This document shows positions 13,166 to 19,224 of a stretch of DNA of 37,028 nt, in pieces (the stretch's first letter is position 1; each line of letters opens with the position of its first letter). Location: IMG/VR virus record IMGVR_UViG_3300046542_000087, positions 1-37,028 of that record; one strand, written 5' to 3'. The translations under genes were made by a program, and so were the position numbers. The notes under the pieces are model-generated. The model saw only the letters and a list, made by a program, of their open reading frames with translations. It ran no database searches and was not told where the DNA came from. Origin of the DNA: a virus.

Positions 13166-13196
13166 GCCCGGTCATTCCCCAGTGATCGGGCTTTTT
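13166..13196 (+). terminator. Rho-independent terminator after rusA
   Basis: GCCCGGTCA and TGATCGGGC pair across an 8-base loop (one G-U), followed by TTTTT. A 17-codon open frame (13131-13184) ends inside the stem; no good ribosome site precedes it. The rest of 13045-13225 shows no gene. Confidence 0.75.
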
Positions 13197-13225
13197 CATG
13201 CCTGAAACACTCACATCAAGCCCGG

Positions 13226-13234
13226 TGCTATGAT
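13226..13234 (+). promoter_or_regulatory. Extended -10 promoter for the holin operon
   Basis: TGCTATGAT is an extended -10 element 36 bases before the first holin-like gene and 30 bases after a terminator. No good -35 is seen, which extended -10 promoters tolerate or which may mean an activator is needed. Confidence 0.5.
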
Positions 13235-13269
13235 TGCGCCATGACAAAACGATCTTGGAGCTGGCGCCT

Positions 13270-13653
13270 ATGAGTGCTGAAGTAATCGCAGGGACCGCAG
13301 CAGGGGTTACGGCAGCAGGCGTGGCATTGGTGCTTGATCAGAACATCGCGATGGCCTCGATAGGCGGGGTTTTCATGTTTTTGGCCGTCTCGGTGGCCAT
13401 TCCCTTGCAGACCCGGGCCTTTTTCAGCATTGGCTCATTCATCCTGGGCTATCTGGTTGGGCTGTTCATGATGACCTATGGCGGCCTGGAGATTTACGCC
13501 GCCATCTCGGCCCTGATCGCCTCGGGGCTGGGCTCATCGATCTTCGCCAGCCTGTACCAGTGGTTCGATGGCGGTAAGATGCCTTTCTGGGTCGCATTCC
13601 TGACCAAATTCCTGCCAGCCGGCATGAAAAAGAACGGAGGCTCCAATGAGTGA
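13270..13653 (+). CDS. Holin-like membrane protein
   Basis: The 127-residue protein has about four hydrophobic segments (VIAGTAAGVTAAGVALV, IGGVFMFLAVSVAI, IGSFILGYLVGLFMM, AISALIASGLGSSIFA) and a lysine-containing C-terminus (PAGMKKNGG). It is the first gene behind a promoter and overlaps a second holin-like gene. GGAG lies nine bases before the ATG. A holin or antiholin role is inferred from topology and pairing. Confidence 0.65.
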   Translation: MSAEVIAGTAAGVTAAGVALVLDQNIAMASIGGVFMFLAVSVAIPLQTRAFFSIGSFILGYLVGLFMMTYGGLEIYAAISALIASGLGSSIFASLYQWFDGGKMPFWVAFLTKFLPAGMKKNGGSNE

Positions 13654-13963
13654 GAGCACCTACCTTGCCATGGCGCTGCTCGCAATGCGCGGCGCTTGCC
13701 ACTTCCTCATTGCGCTGAGGATCTTCAGCTACAAGCCGACGAACCAGCGCGAACACCGTCAGGTCGTCGGCCTGATCGCCGCCATCTTCGGTGGGGCCAA
13801 TCTCGCTGAATTCTTGCGCATTCTGAACAACTTCACGCAATTCGCGGTAAGTGTTGAACCCTATCTGCCAATTGTTATGCTGTTCGTGCTGATCTTCGTC
13901 ACATGGTCAGGCGGCAACATCGCCCGGCTGCTCCCACAAAAACTCCTACAGAGACTTCCCTGA
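13646..13963 (+). CDS. Putative 3-TM holin (Phage_holin_3-like)
   Basis: The 105-residue protein shows three hydrophobic segments and the pattern of the 3TM holin family: a first helix ending in LIALRIFSY, REHRQVVGLIAAIFGGANLAEFLRIL, and VMLFVLIFVTWSGGNIARLL (the GN(I/V)ARLL ending is typical). It would open the inner membrane for the endolysin encoded about 20 kb further on. The start overlaps the preceding holin-like gene by eight bases. Confidence 0.75.
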   Translation: MSESTYLAMALLAMRGACHFLIALRIFSYKPTNQREHRQVVGLIAAIFGGANLAEFLRILNNFTQFAVSVEPYLPIVMLFVLIFVTWSGGNIARLLPQKLLQRLP

Positions 13964-14082
13964 TGCGAAAACAAGTCACCAACACCAAAAAGCCCGATAG
14001 CAACATGTATGCCGGCACTGGCAAGCCAAGCAAGCCGGCCCGCCCCGCCGCTCCAGCGCCAAGCAAAAAGAAACCGGCATGA
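13963..14082 (+). CDS. Small Lys/Pro/Ala-rich protein
   Basis: A 39-residue, strongly basic protein (VTNTKKPDSNMYAGTGKPSK, then PAAPAPSKKKPA) with no hydrophobic segment. One-base overlap with the preceding stop and four-base overlap with the following ATG support translation. Likely disordered; function unknown. Confidence 0.55.
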   Translation: MRKQVTNTKKPDSNMYAGTGKPSKPARPAAPAPSKKKPA

Positions 14083-14423
14083 TTGCGCTGCTGATTCATT
14101 TCCTTGGGTTCCTGCTGATCAACTCAGCGGTGCCCTCGTACATCGAATCAGCAGGCTCCTATTTCCTCGCGGGGTGGTACGCCGCCTTCGCTGCGGTCGA
14201 CATGATCGCTCTCTGCTTCGCCGCCCCTCGCCTGCGCATCCTACTGGCCCTGTCCTTCGCCTGGTCGGCTGCGCTGGCCTTTGAGTGCCTGATGCTGCAA
14301 GACACGCTGCAGCGCAATGACTGGATAGCCCAGGCCGCAATCGATTCAATTCTTTTCGCCTACCTGATCCTGCTACTCTTCAGGCTCAAAACCAAACCAC
14401 AGACCGAGAGACAACGACCATGA
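14079..14423 (+). CDS. Multi-spanning membrane protein
   Basis: The 114-residue protein has four hydrophobic stretches (IALLIHFLGFLLI, SYFLAGWYAAFAAVDMIALC, RILLALSFAWSAALAFECL, ILFAYLILLLF) and a basic tail. In a holin cassette it could be a further lysis protein or a membrane exclusion protein. It overlaps both neighbours by four bases. No family recognised. Confidence 0.6.
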   Translation: MIALLIHFLGFLLINSAVPSYIESAGSYFLAGWYAAFAAVDMIALCFAAPRLRILLALSFAWSAALAFECLMLQDTLQRNDWIAQAAIDSILFAYLILLLFRLKTKPQTERQRP

Positions 14424-14917
14424 CCCAGCGCTTTATCGGAACCAAGATCATTCTGGCCCTCACCATGTCGCGACTGGCCTACAACGAGTACAGAGGCTGG
14501 CAATTGCCCGCCGACGAGAACGGCGCCGACGATGGCTACCTCGTTGAGTACACCGATGGCGGCACGCCAAACCATCCAGGCCATGCAGGGTACATCAGCT
14601 GGTCTCCAAAGGCGCAATTCGATAACGCCTATCGCCCGACCGAGGGCCTGACCTTTGGCTTGGCCATTGAAGCGCTGAAGCTTGGTCAGCGCGTGGCGCG
14701 TGCCGGCTGGAATGGCAAAGGCATGTGGCTCGTTCTCGACCCTGGCTCTGTTGTCAGCGAAGTCAGAGATGGTAGTGCGTATCACAAGGCTGGCGTAACT
14801 GGCTCGTTCACGATCAATCCTCACATCGACATGAGGACGGCAACCGGTGAAATGCAGCCAGGCTGGCTCGCATCGCAGACCGACATGCTCGCCGATGACT
14901 GGCTAATAATCGAGTAA
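14420..14917 (+). CDS. Tad2-like (DUF2829) protein, candidate anti-Thoeris sponge
   Basis: Residues ~78-164 match the DUF2829/Tad2 domain: FGLAIEALKLGQRVARAGWN, GKGMWLVLDPG, and the ending IDMRTATG ... GWLASQTDMLADDWLII. Tad2 proteins bind the cyclic ADP-ribose signal made by Thoeris ThsB and so block host defence. An extra N-terminal domain (~1-70; TMSRLAYNEYRGW, GYLVEYTDGG, GYISWSPKAQFDNAYRP) precedes it. It is last in the holin operon, followed by a terminator, a typical accessory position. The family is clear; anti-Thoeris activity is inferred, since some DUF2829 proteins may bind other ligands. Confidence 0.8.
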   Translation: MTQRFIGTKIILALTMSRLAYNEYRGWQLPADENGADDGYLVEYTDGGTPNHPGHAGYISWSPKAQFDNAYRPTEGLTFGLAIEALKLGQRVARAGWNGKGMWLVLDPGSVVSEVRDGSAYHKAGVTGSFTINPHIDMRTATGEMQPGWLASQTDMLADDWLIIE

Positions 14918-14936
14918 ACAGCAGGAATCACCAAAT

Positions 14937-14962
14937 AAACCCGGCCAAGCGCCGGGTTTTTT
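14937..14962 (+). terminator. Rho-independent terminator after the Tad2-like gene
   Basis: AAACCCGGC and GCCGGGTTT form a perfect 9-bp stem with loop CAAGC and a T6 tract overlapping its end. It separates the holin/Tad2 operon from the packaging genes. Confidence 0.9.
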
Positions 14963-14990
14963 GTATCCGCTCGGAGCGAAGCGCTATTAT
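14961..14990 (+). promoter_or_regulatory. Possible promoter for the packaging/head operon
   Basis: TTGTAT (14961-14966), 18 bases, TATTAT (14985-14990), 32 bases before the first gene. The -35 is weak and overlaps the terminator T-run, so this is tentative. Confidence 0.4.
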
Positions 14991-15022
14991 CTTGCTCAAA
15001 TCAACCAAAACGAGACATAACC

Positions 15023-15289
15023 ATGATCAAGGTCTTCAAAGAGAAAGCGCCGACGCTCCAAGCCGTGGAAGTCACCGACGTGCTGAATCAGCTTCCAGAG
15101 GTGGCAAACCTGATTGGTGCCACGCAAGCCGGTGTGTCGATCACCAGTGAAGGGCGCGTGGGTAACTTCAAGCTGGATGGCCAAGATGATTCCTACCAAG
15201 TGAAGGAAGGCCAGGTCATCGCTCTGTCGAATGGCGAGATCACCGTGTTGGATGCGGCAGAGTTCTACTCCAAGTACGAGGCGATCTGA
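15023..15289 (+). CDS. Hypothetical protein before the terminase genes
   Basis: The 88-residue protein ends with a strand-rich unit SYQVKEGQVIALSNGEITVL followed by DAAEFYSKYE, reminiscent of PGDYG-type domains found beside phage head genes. It leads the packaging operon, and terS follows after one base. Function unknown. Confidence 0.65.
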   Translation: MIKVFKEKAPTLQAVEVTDVLNQLPEVANLIGATQAGVSITSEGRVGNFKLDGQDDSYQVKEGQVIALSNGEITVLDAAEFYSKYEAI

Positions 15290-15290
15290 C

Positions 15291-15722
15291 ATGGCAGGCG
15301 GTCGCCCTACGAAGTACAAGCCGGATCATTGCAAGGTTGCCAAGGCGATGGCAAAGCTCGGGGCGACCGATGCAGAAATGGCCGCAGCCTTCGGTGTCGC
15401 TGTGCAGACACTCAACTTGTGGAAGGTGACCTACCCGGAGTTTTCTGCCTCCGTAAAGCTCGACAAGGCAGTTGCAGACGGGAAAGTGGTCGAATCACTG
15501 TACAAGCGGGCCATGGGCTACAGCGTCACGGAGGAGGATATCCGGGTCATTGACGGCAAGATCGTCCGCAGCGAAGTTACCAGGCATTACCCGCCAGACC
15601 CGACCGCAATGATCTTTTGGCTGAAGAACCGGGATAAGGCCAACTGGCGCGATAAGCACGAATTCGAACACTCGGGCGGAATTTCCGTGGTCAAGATCGA
15701 CGGCACCGACGAGGCCCTGTGA
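15291..15722 (+). CDS. terS: Terminase small subunit
   Basis: The 143-residue protein begins AGGRPTKYKPD and contains a helix-turn-helix (LGATDAEMAAAFGVAVQTLN) followed by FSASVKLDKAVADGKVVESL and a C-terminal PPDPTAMIFWLKNRDKANWR, typical of phage TerS proteins that recognise the packaging site. The ATG at 15291 follows GAGG; a longer frame into the upstream gene is rejected. It overlaps terL by one base. Confidence 0.88.
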   Translation: MAGGRPTKYKPDHCKVAKAMAKLGATDAEMAAAFGVAVQTLNLWKVTYPEFSASVKLDKAVADGKVVESLYKRAMGYSVTEEDIRVIDGKIVRSEVTRHYPPDPTAMIFWLKNRDKANWRDKHEFEHSGGISVVKIDGTDEAL

Positions 15723-17062
15723 TGAAACTCACGCTCAAGCAGCTTGAAGCCCAGGTGATCCTGGCCAGCTCGGCCATGTACCTGATGCTGTTTGGCGGGT
15801 CACGCTCAGGCAAAACCTTCCTGCTGGTGCGCAACATCATCATGCGGGCCCTGAAGGCGCCAAAGAGCCGGCACATCATCGTGCGCCTTCGCTTCAACAG
15901 CGTGAAGAACTCGATTGTCCTCGACACCTTCCCCAAGGTCATGGACCTGTGCTTTCCAGGGGTGGCCTACAACATCAGCAAGTCAGACTGGTACGCCAAG
16001 TTCCCCAACGGTTCCGAGGTCTGGTTTGCCGGCATCGACGACAAGGAGCGCACCGAGAAGATCCTCGGCATGGAGTTCGTGACGGTCTACTTCAATGAGT
16101 CGAGTCAGATCCCGTGGGGTTCGGTGGGCATCGTGATCACCCGCCTGGCGCAGAAGTGCATGCAGATCGTCAACGGCGTCGAGGCGCCCATGAAGCCGCG
16201 AGCCTACTTCGACTGCAACCCGCCGAACAAAGCGCACTGGTCCTATCGCCTGTTCATTGAGAAACGCGACCCGGAGACCAAGAAGCCGGTGGCCGACCCT
16301 GGCAACTACGCCGCCTTCCAGATCAACCCTGACGCCAACGCCGAGAACCTGACGCCTGAGTACATCGAGAGCCTGAAGTCGCTCAGCGTGCGATTGCAGA
16401 AGCGCTTCCTCAAAGGCGAATTCACCGACGCCAACCCGAGCCAGCTGTTCAGCGAGGAAAACATCGAGAGCAACCGCGTACTGGACGGCAGTAACTTGCC
16501 CGACATGGTGCGCGTGGTGGTGGCGGTCGACCCCTCTGGCGCGGGCGATGAGGCTGGCGCGGATAACGATGCGATCGGCATCATCGTCGCGGGCCTGGGT
16601 ACGGACGGCAATGCCTACCTGCTGGAAGACTGCACCGTGAAGGCAGGCCCTGCGACCTGGGGCAACGTGGCCACCTCGGCCTTCGACCGGCATGAGGCTG
16701 ACTGCGTGGTGGGCGAGGGCAACTACGGCGGCGCCATGGTCAAGCACGTCATCATGACCTCGAGGCCTCGGACACCATACAAGCAAGTCACCGCCAGCCG
16801 TGGCAAGCACGTCAGGGCTGAGCCGTTCTCCGCACTGTACGAGCAAGGCAAGGTGCGCCACGTCGGGCACTACCGCGAACTGGAAGATGAGCTGGTCGCC
16901 TTCACCACCTTCGGTTACGTCGGGGAATCCTCGCCGAACCGCGCCGACGCCCTGATATGGGCCTTGGCTGAACTGTTCCCAGGCATGGTCAAGGCCAAGA
17001 AGGAACCCGTCAAAGAATCGAAGCCGCGCCCTCGCGTTGGCAATCACAACTGGATGAGCTGA
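15722..17062 (+). CDS. terL: Terminase large subunit
   Basis: The 446-residue protein has Walker A GGSRSGKT (25-32), Walker B-like VTVYFNESS at ~120 and a C-terminal nuclease with VAVDPSG at ~260, CVVGEGNYGG and the acidic SPNRADALIWALAELF. It pumps DNA into procapsids and cuts it, in P22-like phages headful-wise. The ATG at 15722 has GAGG seven bases before it. Confidence 0.95.
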   Translation: MKLTLKQLEAQVILASSAMYLMLFGGSRSGKTFLLVRNIIMRALKAPKSRHIIVRLRFNSVKNSIVLDTFPKVMDLCFPGVAYNISKSDWYAKFPNGSEVWFAGIDDKERTEKILGMEFVTVYFNESSQIPWGSVGIVITRLAQKCMQIVNGVEAPMKPRAYFDCNPPNKAHWSYRLFIEKRDPETKKPVADPGNYAAFQINPDANAENLTPEYIESLKSLSVRLQKRFLKGEFTDANPSQLFSEENIESNRVLDGSNLPDMVRVVVAVDPSGAGDEAGADNDAIGIIVAGLGTDGNAYLLEDCTVKAGPATWGNVATSAFDRHEADCVVGEGNYGGAMVKHVIMTSRPRTPYKQVTASRGKHVRAEPFSALYEQGKVRHVGHYRELEDELVAFTTFGYVGESSPNRADALIWALAELFPGMVKAKKEPVKESKPRPRVGNHNWMS

Positions 17063-17064
17063 AC

Positions 17065-19224
17065 ATGAGCGAAGCAACAGACGACGAAAAACTGGTCATC
17101 GAGGCCCATGCCAGGTTCGACCAATGCGAGGACTTCGAAGGCGACTTTCGTAAGCTGTTCACGGACGACCTGAAATTCGTCAGTGCCGACAGCGACAACG
17201 GCTACCAATGGCCAGATGCGATGCGCTTGCAACGGCAGAGCAACGCCAAGCCCTGCCTGACCATCAACAAGACCCGTCAGCACGCACTGATGGTGATCAA
17301 CGAGGCCAAGGAGAACCGCCCGAGCGTCAAGGTCAATGCTGTGGGTGGTGACGCCTCCTACGAGAGCGCCCAGGTCTACGAGGGGGTTATCCGCCACATC
17401 GAGTACCAGTCCAACGCCACTGACGCCTACGACACCGCGCTGGACTTCCAAGTAAAGACCGGCATCGGCTACTGGCGGGTAGTCACCGAATACGCCGGCG
17501 ACGATTCTTTCGACCAAGAACTGTTCATCCGCCGCATCCGCAACCCGCTGAGCGTGTACCTGGATCCTGACATCAAGGAAATGGACGGCAGCGACGCCAA
17601 GTTCGGGTTCATCTTCGACGATATGCGCCGCGAGGACTTCGATCGTAAGTACCCGACCTTCAAGGACCAGGTGGCAACCAGCGTGTTTGGCCAGTCCAGC
17701 AACTGGTGCACCAAGGACACCGTGCGCGTGGCCGAGTATTACTACGTCGACTACGAGAAGGACACCCTGATCGCCCTGCCGATGCCGCAGCAGAACCCCG
17801 ACGGCACGGTGGGCGAGGTGCTTGAAATGATCGCCTTGTCGGCGCTACGTGAGTCGATGCCGGACCTGGCTAAGGTGGCCATGAAGGACAAGACCATCCA
17901 GAAACGCCCGATCCAGCGGCAGAAGGTGCTGTGGTGCCTGATCGCGGGTGACCAGATCATTGATCGCAGTGAGTGGGTTGGCTCAACCATCCCCATCGTC
18001 CGCGTGGTCGGCGAGGAGTGCATGATCGACGGCAAGCTCGACCGCAAGGGCCATGTGCGCAACCTCAAGGACCCGCAGCGCATGTACAACTACTGGTCAT
18101 CATCGGCCACTGAACACGTCGCGCTGCAGACCAAGACGCCGTATGTGGCCGGGGCCAGGTCCATCGAAGGGTTCGAGCCATACTGGGAGAACGCCAACAC
18201 CGAGAACAGTGCCTACCTGCCGTACAACGACGTTGACGACCAGGGCAACCCGCTATTGCCACCGCAGCGAGCCGAAGCCCCGGTGATGAGCCAGGCCTAC
18301 ATGAGCGGTATGCAGGTCGCTGCCGAAGAAATGAAGATGGTCAGTGGGCAGAACGACGCGCTGATGGGCGCCCCGTCCAACGAGATCAGCGGCATCGCCA
18401 TCGGCAAGCGCTCCAAGCAGGGCGTGCAGTCGACCATGCAGTACCGCGACAACCAGGCCAAGGCCATTCGCTACACCGGAAAGATCCTCATCGAAGCCAT
18501 CCCCCGCGTCTACGACACGCCGCGCACGATCCGCATCCTGGCCGAGGACGGCAGCGATGACACTGTGCAGATCGACCCAACGCAAGAGCAGCCAATGGTC
18601 GAAAGCAAGAAGCAGGACGGTACCGATGGCGTAAACCGTGCGTTCAACCCGGCCATGGGCAAGTACGAGGTGATCGCCGACACCGGGCCGAACTACTCGA
18701 GCAAGCGCGAGGAGGCGTTCGACGCCATGACCAGCATCGCGATGGCCGATCCCACCTTCCTGCAGAAAGCCGGCGACCTGTACTTCAAAGCCGGTGACTT
18801 TGCCATGGCTGACGAGCTGTCGGAGCGCTACAAGAACTCGATCCCGGCCGAGATTCGCGGGGAGGCGCCACCACCCGAGCAACAGATGCTGCAGGAACAG
18901 CTCGATCAGGCCGGCCAGCAGATCCAGCAGCTGCAAGCCCAGCTCGCCGCCGCCATGCAGACTGCCGCCGACTTCGACAAGAAGGCCGAGAACAAGGACA
19001 AGGAGACCGAGATCAATGCGTTCAAGGCCACCACTGACCGTCTCAAGGCGCTGATCGACAAGATGGACCCAGCCCAGGCCGCACTGCTCGCCGCTCAAGC
19101 CGTGTCGCAATCGCTGGCCGACCCGATGCCGGTGGATCAGCAGGCGCTGCCAGAAATGCAGCAGATTCCACCAATGCAAGACGAATTCATGCAACAGCCA
19201 TCGGGCATTCCGCCCCTTCAGTAA
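17065..19224 (+). CDS. Portal protein, P22 gp1-like
   Basis: With 719 residues it is close to P22 gp1 (725). Typical portal segments are NKTRQHALMVINEAKENRP, FQVKTGIGYWRVVTEY and NPLSVYLDPDIKEMDGSDAK. The C-terminus (~600-719) is a Gln/Ala-rich coiled coil (EQQMLQEQLDQAGQQIQQLQ), like the barrel of P22. Twelve copies form the DNA gate at one capsid vertex. It follows terL after two bases. Confidence 0.93.
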   Translation: MSEATDDEKLVIEAHARFDQCEDFEGDFRKLFTDDLKFVSADSDNGYQWPDAMRLQRQSNAKPCLTINKTRQHALMVINEAKENRPSVKVNAVGGDASYESAQVYEGVIRHIEYQSNATDAYDTALDFQVKTGIGYWRVVTEYAGDDSFDQELFIRRIRNPLSVYLDPDIKEMDGSDAKFGFIFDDMRREDFDRKYPTFKDQVATSVFGQSSNWCTKDTVRVAEYYYVDYEKDTLIALPMPQQNPDGTVGEVLEMIALSALRESMPDLAKVAMKDKTIQKRPIQRQKVLWCLIAGDQIIDRSEWVGSTIPIVRVVGEECMIDGKLDRKGHVRNLKDPQRMYNYWSSSATEHVALQTKTPYVAGARSIEGFEPYWENANTENSAYLPYNDVDDQGNPLLPPQRAEAPVMSQAYMSGMQVAAEEMKMVSGQNDALMGAPSNEISGIAIGKRSKQGVQSTMQYRDNQAKAIRYTGKILIEAIPRVYDTPRTIRILAEDGSDDTVQIDPTQEQPMVESKKQDGTDGVNRAFNPAMGKYEVIADTGPNYSSKREEAFDAMTSIAMADPTFLQKAGDLYFKAGDFAMADELSERYKNSIPAEIRGEAPPPEQQMLQEQLDQAGQQIQQLQAQLAAAMQTAADFDKKAENKDKETEINAFKATTDRLKALIDKMDPAQAALLAAQAVSQSLADPMPVDQQALPEMQQIPPMQDEFMQQPSGIPPLQ

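What the first reader, a model, noticed from the sequence alone, without database searches (positions are those of the whole stretch)
14420..14917. Tad2-like DUF2829 protein: candidate anti-Thoeris sponge with an added N-terminal domain
Residues ~78-164 carry the full DUF2829 pattern (RVARAGWN, GKGMW, ASQTDMLADDW). Tad2 proteins sequester the Thoeris signalling nucleotide. Here a separate ~70-residue domain is fused in front, and the gene sits behind holins at an operon end, not in the early region where anti-defence genes are expected. A late-timed defence inhibitor, or a different ligand, would be new.
Basis: partly seen in the sequence, partly recalled or inferred. Interest (0 to 1): 0.75.

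Follow-up and report, generated by a model that had tools for sequence, protein, structure and literature searches.

The report
Swappable Tad2-like phage counter-defence gene
This phage gene very probably makes a protein that soaks up a bacterial alarm molecule; its extra front domain is not unique but is the constant half of a protein family whose back half is traded for other domains, so the family looks like a set of interchangeable counter-defence tools.

Summary
In detail: window 14420-14917 encodes a 165-aa protein whose residues 78-164 are a Tad2-like domain (Pfam PF11195, E 1.2e-24). A confident model (pLDDT 93.6) matches the solved Tad2 sponges SptTad2, ModTad2, HgmTad2 and SPO1 Tad2, and both signature motifs are intact. 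The claim that the added N-terminal domain is special does not hold. The whole protein matches phrog_872, which includes phage N4 gp49, and hundreds of viral contigs encode the same architecture.

The larger result is modularity at three levels. (1) The 72-aa N-domain, with no match among solved structures, is joined to Tad2, crAss001_48, Phage_gp49_66, Acb2/Tad1-hairpin-like and other domains. In otherwise collinear prophages, DNA identity runs through the N-domain, collapses over the C-domain (Tad2 versus crAss001_48) and resumes after the stop. (2) Inside Tad2, the segment between the two signatures is swapped. (3) In the window's own slot, the closest relative has a Phage_gp49_66 gene instead, exchanged from start codon to stop codon.

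Best reading: a cargo gene for a signal sponge with a constant N-domain and exchangeable ligand-binding part. Ligand and target system are unproven. The late position is ordinary for this family.

The parts
14420..14917 (+). Whole gene: N-domain plus Tad2-like domain, 165 aa (P0001)
   Evidence: ORF; phrog_872 full length 2-165, 195.8 bits; model pLDDT 93.6
14420..14635 (+). N-terminal domain, residues 1-72 ('RGW...SWSPK' domain); constant module of unknown function, no match among solved structures
   Evidence: Model pLDDT 96.9; no PDB match, best E 3.6; BFVD hits only in its own family plus a few small proteins; partners
14651..14911 (+). Tad2-like (DUF2829) domain, residues 78-164
   Evidence: PF11195 87 bits; Foldseek 8wjd E 2.5e-9, 9eib, 8kbj, 8smf
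14699..14728 (+). Signature 1, RAGWNGKGMW (residues 94-103), beta1-beta2 loop, pocket element by the published description of Tad2
   Evidence: Near-invariant in 60 relatives; identical core in four solved Tad2 proteins
14729..14857 (+). Variable segment between the signatures (residues 104-146), exchanged as a cassette among relatives
   Evidence: Insert (residues 104-132) mean pairwise identity 0.19 against 0.64 for the N-domain; L004 versus phiAH14a differ mainly here
14861..14902 (+). Signature 2, GWLASQTDMLADDW (residues 148-161), loop plus helix alpha3, pocket element
13270..13653 (+). Holin 1 (ORF opens at 13234; ATG at 13270)
   Evidence: phrog_198 holin E 1.2e-9; Pfam Phage_holin_8 below cut-off
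13646..13963 (+). Holin 2
   Evidence: phrog_217 holin E 3.7e-10
14079..14423 (+). 114-aa ORF, apparently membrane-bound, whose stop codon overlaps the ATG of the sponge gene
   Evidence: conserved in L413 (76%) and L412 (39%)
14937..14959 (+). Terminator-like stem-loop after the gene; retained in relative L413, where the gene itself is replaced
   Evidence: L413 sequence
14911..17099 (+). Downstream flank (ORF 88, TerS, TerL) collinear with L413 at 82% DNA identity from the stop codon onward; marks the right edge of the cargo slot
13188..14423 (+). Upstream flank collinear with L413 at 71.6% DNA identity, ending at the start codon of the sponge gene; marks the left edge of the cargo slot

Best explanation
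The gene is a phage cargo (moron-type) gene for a Tad2-type sponge. SHOWN by sequence and models: the C-terminal half has the Tad2 fold and both signature motifs; the N-terminal 72 residues are a separate confidently predicted domain; in relatives the C-terminal domain is exchanged behind this constant N-domain, the segment between the signatures is exchanged within Tad2, and the whole gene is exchanged from start to stop codon in the window's own slot between the holin genes and the terminase genes. INFERRED: the Tad2 half forms a multimer like the solved Tad2 tetramers and sequesters a nucleotide immune signal (a gcADPR-type or His-ADPR-type Thoeris signal, possibly cyclic dinucleotides), so that the effector is not switched on; exchange of the variable segment tunes which ligand is bound; expression with the lysis and packaging genes is timely because some sensors respond to late proteins such as the major head protein. 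The N-domain's role is the least certain: the most likely is a scaffold or oligomerisation module that works with several ligand-binding domains. Sponge function about 0.65; modular exchange about 0.95; N-domain as scaffold about 0.4.
For: PF11195 87 bits. Sequence matches to SptTad2 (E 6e-18), AcrIIA7/HgmTad2, ModTad2 and SPO1 Tad2. Model pLDDT 93.6 with Foldseek E 2.5e-9 to SptTad2 and target TM 0.84 to ModTad2, which was solved with hisADPR. Motifs GWNGK.M and W..S..D..A.DW kept in the window and in all four solved Tad2 proteins, corresponding to the pocket elements described in PMC12043709. Domain swap: L326 (Tad2) versus L347 (crAss001_48): upstream 87%, N-domain 83%, C-part 34%, downstream 89% DNA identity; L007/L183, L007/L347 and L326/L183 likewise. 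Insert swap: L004 versus phiAH14a; insert identity 0.19 against N-domain 0.64. Whole-gene swap at the window's slot: L413 has Phage_gp49_66, L412 has no gene there, L467 has N-domain plus crAss001_48. N-domain also fused to an Acb2/Tad1-hairpin domain (L202 27.7 bits, cut-off 27). Thoeris genes occur in Pseudomonas, the likely host genus: 29 of 149 genomes with ThsB_TIR; one with a macro-domain ThsA.
Against: No activity, ligand or tetramer was tested. Solved Tad2 chains match only residues 75-165; how the N-domain fits on a tetramer is unknown. Several exchange partners (crAss001_48, Phage_gp49_66, phrog_1761) are of unknown function and not detectably related to Acb2, so the exchange pool may simply be small phage genes rather than counter-defence genes. 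Co-occurrence of Tad2 and ThsB_TIR in Pseudomonas has no power (3 genomes with Tad2, 1 with both).
Confidence: 0.65

Rival explanations
1. The Tad2 fold has been put to another use: the protein binds a nucleotide or nucleotide-like ligand for a purpose other than counter-defence, for example regulation or a structural role in the late operon.
For: Function of phrog_872 is recorded as unknown. The gene often lies among head, portal or terminase genes (phiAH14a, CSP3, Skulduggery, Vibrio 1.205). The N-domain is annotated 'decoration protein' in Aeromonas JELG-KS1 and by a similarity note in DT01.
Against: The position is not conserved: in N4 it lies beside vRNAP and gp48, in Vibrio phages between ssb and endolysin, in Louie after the spanin gene. 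The gene is replaceable or absent in close relatives, unlike a structural gene. The signature motifs are kept while the segment between them diversifies, as expected for an arms-race binder.
Confidence: 0.2
2. The N-domain is a virion-loading tag: the protein is made late, packaged in the capsid and injected with the DNA, so that the sponge acts at the start of the next infection, as T4 internal proteins and P1 Dar proteins are said to do (from memory).
For: Constant N-domain with exchangeable C-terminal domains; frequent location in head and packaging operons.
Against: In N4 and in Vibrio podophages the gene is not in the head cluster. No virion proteome was available here. The domain is about 72 aa and folded, unlike a short capsid-targeting peptide.
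Confidence: 0.08
3. It is an anti-CRISPR: homologues are annotated 'anti-CRISPR protein' because AcrIIA7 is a DUF2829 protein.
For: AcrIIA7 (8kbi, 9kzr) is among the best solved matches. Phages Louie, Huey, Mimir124 and phi1_146050 carry that annotation.
Against: PDB titles describe the AcrIIA7/HgmTad2 protein bound to 1',2'-cADPR and cGG, that is, as a nucleotide sponge. The label spreads by homology to one family member.
Confidence: 0.05

Closest known systems
Tad2 sponges (PF11195): SptTad2, HgmTad2/AcrIIA7, ModTad2, SPO1 Tad2 (gp34.65)
   Same: Fold, both signature motifs, about 32-42% identity over residues 75-165
   Different: The solved chains match only the Tad2 half; here a 72-aa domain precedes it. 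The span between the signature Met and Trp is 47 residues, between SPO1/ModTad2 (43) and SptTad2 (55)/HgmTad2 (61)
phrog_872 and Escherichia phage N4 gp49
   Same: Identical two-domain architecture over the full length
   Different: Only sequence divergence and genome position. The family is listed as unknown function; the N-domain has no Pfam model that scores
Acb2/Tad1 hairpin proteins (PF24729; T4 Vs.4 used as control)
   Same: Another sponge-type domain found behind the same N-domain in some phages (L202 27.7 bits, cut-off 27)
   Different: Unrelated fold to Tad2; the match is borderline and covers only the second part of the profile
Polymorphic toxins (analogy only, from general knowledge)
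   Same: Constant N-terminal part with exchangeable C-terminal effector domains
   Different: Here the exchanged domains are proposed sponges of phages, not toxins, and there is no secretion or immunity gene

Membership tests
Tad2-like family (PF11195) | Score above Pfam's curated cut-off | tested here: met
   87.1 bits against 25, profile positions 2-73 of 73
Tad2-like family (PF11195) | Same fold as solved Tad2 proteins | tested here: met
   Foldseek E 2.5e-9 to 2e-4 for 24 Tad2 chains, target TM 0.66-0.87
Tad2-like family (PF11195) | Signature pocket motifs (RxGWNGKxM and WxxSxxDxxAxDW) kept | tested here: met
   Alignment with four solved Tad2 proteins; near-invariant in 60 relatives. Individual ligand contacts were not mapped on coordinates
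Tad2 sponge (functional) | Homotetramer | not tested
   Only a monomer was modelled
Tad2 sponge (functional) | Binds gcADPR, His-ADPR or cyclic dinucleotides without degrading them | not testable with these tools
   Needs a binding assay
Tad2 sponge (functional) | Protects phage from Thoeris (or CBASS) | not testable with these tools
   Needs plaque assays
phrog_872 | Full-length match over both domains | tested here: met
   Residues 2-165 to positions 13-172 of 172, 195.8 bits
PADLOC defence models | Hit to any model | tested here: not met
   No hit for P0001 at E <= 0.001; this library holds defence systems, so a sponge is not expected in it

The most novel reading that the evidence does not exclude
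The RGW/SWSPK N-domain is the constant platform of a polymorphic counter-defence system: phages keep the N-domain and trade the C-terminal domain (Tad2, Acb2/Tad1 hairpin, crAss001_48, Phage_gp49_66, phrog_1761 hairpin), so the domains of unknown function in this pool are uncharacterised signal sponges or other immune inhibitors.
Probability: 0.3. Interest if true: 0.8.

Novelty: new variant of a known kind. Interest (0 to 1): 0.55.

Why it matters
If the exchange pool really is a set of counter-defence domains, a single conserved N-domain becomes a handle for finding new immune-signal inhibitors. crAss001_48 and Phage_gp49_66, widespread phage families without a function, become directly testable candidates. 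The natural swap of the segment between the Tad2 signatures gives ready-made pairs (L004 versus phiAH14a, L007 versus L326) for asking how a sponge changes its ligand.

Tried and rejected
The idea that the N-domain fusion is unique to this phage was rejected. Relatedness of crAss001_48 and phrog_1761 hairpins to Acb2/Tad1 was tested by profile-profile comparison and not found. The N-domain was searched for in solved structures: nothing. The neighbouring 88-aa ORF was tested as a relative of the N-domain: no match. The HMM scan of window ORFs returned nothing because of a parsing fault and was repeated correctly. STALD (PF18185) as a marker of type I Thoeris gave 0 of 7, but no control rang, so nothing follows. 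Co-occurrence of Tad2 and ThsB_TIR in Pseudomonas has no power. No paper in the held library was found that describes the two-domain family or the exchange, but subscription papers, including the original Tad2 structure papers, are not held. Conserved synteny was sought with the window's neighbouring genes and not found for most relatives.

Full report
OBSERVATION. The ORF at 14420-14917 (+) encodes 165 aa. Pfam finds one domain, PF11195 Tad2-like, at residues 78-164 with 87.1 bits against a cut-off of 25 (E 1.2e-24). By sequence the same half matches solved SptTad2 (8wjd), AcrIIA7/HgmTad2 (8kbi, 9kzr), ModTad2 (9eib) and SPO1 Tad2 (8sme). The ATG overlaps the stop of an upstream 114-aa ORF that looks membrane-bound. 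The window is a lambdoid-like phage record of exactly 37,028 bases with a recombination module on the minus strand (NinB, Gam-like, exonuclease). On the plus strand follow O-like and DnaB replication genes, RusA, holins, this gene, TerS and TerL.

STRUCTURE. A model built on 60 sequences has mean pLDDT 93.6 and pTM 0.75. Foldseek against the PDB returns 24 Tad2 chains at E < 0.001, best SptTad2 (E 2.5e-9, 42% identity); ModTad2 in complex with hisADPR aligns with target TM 0.84. The N-domain modelled alone on 90 sequences has pLDDT 96.9, no solved relative (best E 3.6), and in the viral library only members of its own family plus a few small proteins. The two conserved signatures, R94-x-GWNGK-x-M and W149-x-x-S-x-x-D155-x-x-A-x-D-W161, are shared by the window and all four solved Tad2 proteins. 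A review describes the gcADPR pocket as built from the beta1-beta2 loop, the beta4-alpha3 loop and alpha3, among others (PMC12043709), which is where these motifs fall in the model. Individual contacts were not mapped, and ligand class cannot be told: the distance between the signature Met and Trp is 47 residues here, 43 in SPO1 Tad2 and ModTad2, 55 in SptTad2 and 61 in HgmTad2.

THE N-DOMAIN IS NOT SPECIAL TO THIS PROTEIN. phrog_872 (172 positions, unknown function) matches the window protein over its whole length at 195.8 bits. Among phage records 353 match and 89 cover at least 80% of the query. In viral contigs at least 593 relatives were found, and the 68 of the best 80 loci read out in full carry an N-domain, one of them (L026) shortened. 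E. coli phage N4 gp49 has the same architecture.

THE N-DOMAIN IS A CONSTANT MODULE WITH EXCHANGEABLE PARTNERS. The loci gathered gave 230 distinct N-domain proteins, 171 with Tad2. The 52 non-redundant others comprise 28 with a crAss001_48 hairpin (PF21825; three of them also with Phage_gp49_66), one flagged by both the crAss001_48 and phrog_1761 models, 5 with Phage_gp49_66 (PF13876) alone, 5 with an Acb2/Tad1-hairpin-like domain, 2 phrog_1761-type hairpins, 2 with another helical domain, 1 weak Tad2, 4 short or alone, and 4 unassigned. L202 passes the Acb2_Tad1_hairpin cut-off (27.7 against 27) and its sisters fall just below it; T4 Vs.4 as a control scores 71.4. Profile comparison did not link crAss001_48 or phrog_1761 to Acb2. 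N-domains joined to different partners can be 95% identical (L124 with crAss001_48, L304 with Tad2). On an N-domain DNA tree of 39 near relatives the Tad2 label changes at least 8 times (bootstrap 8-10), although most branches are weakly supported; on a tree of 250 proteins 43 changes of partner are needed.

DIRECT EVIDENCE OF SWAPS. Level 1, domain swap: Pseudomonas prophages L326 (N-domain plus Tad2) and L347 (N-domain plus crAss001_48) are collinear for 2.5 kb upstream and through base +197 of the gene, differ over the C-domain, and are collinear again right after the stop. Identities upstream/N/C/downstream are 0.87/0.83/0.34/0.89; L326-L183, L007-L347 and L007-L183 show the same. In phiAH14a, a related backbone, the slot lies between the head morphogenesis gene and the major capsid gene. 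Level 2, loop swap: L004 and phiAH14a (L082) are 85%, 84% and 88% identical in upstream flank, N-domain and downstream flank, but drop to 30-50% from about codon 101 to 150 and return to 97% at the end of the gene. Across the 60-row alignment mean pairwise identity is 0.64 for the N-domain, 0.75 for the signature 1 region and 0.19 for the insert. Level 3, whole-gene swap in the window's own slot: the closest backbone relative L413 (TerL 93% aa) is collinear with window 13188-14423, ending at the ATG, then carries a Phage_gp49_66 gene, then is collinear from the stop codon (14911) for 2.2 kb at 82%. L412 (TerL 79%) has no gene there, and L467 has N-domain plus crAss001_48 immediately upstream of TerS. 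The gene also moves between backbones: window and L001 share the gene (81% and 87%) but not the flanks (37% and 40%).

HOW IT LIKELY WORKS. Shown: fold, motifs, modular exchange. Inferred: multimerisation and sequestration of a nucleotide immune signal, as for the characterised Tad2 proteins (PMC12043709; SPO1 Tad2 does not bind 3'3'-cGAMP in PMC11722364; SptTad2 weakly triggers Panoptes in PMC12657218). The late position is ordinary for the family and is compatible with counter-defence, because ThsB is reported to recognise the major head protein. Thoeris is available as a target in the likely host genus: ThsB_TIR in 29 of 149 Pseudomonas genomes. One of these has a macro-domain ThsA next to ThsB (L406). 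The strain carrying the 85%-identical prophage gene L326 has a TIR-caspase-TIR cluster (L492). That is plausibility, not proof; Tad2 was found in only 3 of the 149 genomes, one of them with ThsB_TIR.

COMPARISON AND NOVELTY. By membership the protein is a Tad2-like family member (all testable features met) and a phrog_872 member. By function it probably works like Tad2. What goes beyond the known kind is the exchange system around it: a constant N-domain without solved relatives, exchangeable C-terminal domains that include Tad2 and, at borderline score, the Acb2/Tad1 hairpin, and exchangeable ligand-facing segments. No paper in the held library was found that describes this, but that library lacks most subscription papers. 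I therefore rate it a new variant of a known kind, interest 0.55.

Noticed in passing
L492:4989-6843 (Pseudomonas sp. TH31): TIR gene, caspase-like gene (PADLOC caspase, 54.6 bits) and a second TIR/ThsB-like gene in a row: a candidate Thoeris-like operon with a caspase effector, in the strain whose prophage carries L326.
   Followed up: partly
L406:419-1860: Macro-domain ThsA (406 bits) beside ThsB: a type II Thoeris system in a Pseudomonas genome.
   Followed up: no
L094:1935-2447 (Vibrio phage 1.205.O): A protein with what looks like a crAss001_48-type hairpin (by eye) directly in front of a DUF2829/Tad2 domain, next to a gene for N-domain plus phrog_1761 hairpin: two members of the exchange pool side by side.
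   Followed up: partly
L083:5603-6456 (phage N4 gp48-gp49): In phage N4 a protein resembling Phage_gp49_66 (gp48, by eye) is encoded directly beside the N-domain plus Tad2 protein (gp49), the same two families that replace each other in the window's slot.
   Followed up: partly
L026:6001-6414: Tad2 part 95% identical to the window's over the variable segment, but with a shortened N-domain lacking the RGW stretch (37% identity to the window's N-domain).
   Followed up: partly
L344:8001-8600: A form with a Cys-rich stretch (RRYVCGATCTRGGDTCNGYCN) inserted between the N-domain and the Tad2 domain.
   Followed up: no
L084:5001-5471 (phage Louie); also hits H72, H95, H107 (Huey, Mimir124, phi1_146050): Public records label this family 'anti-CRISPR protein', probably by transfer from AcrIIA7, which solved structures show binding cyclic ADP-ribose and cGG.
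   Followed up: no
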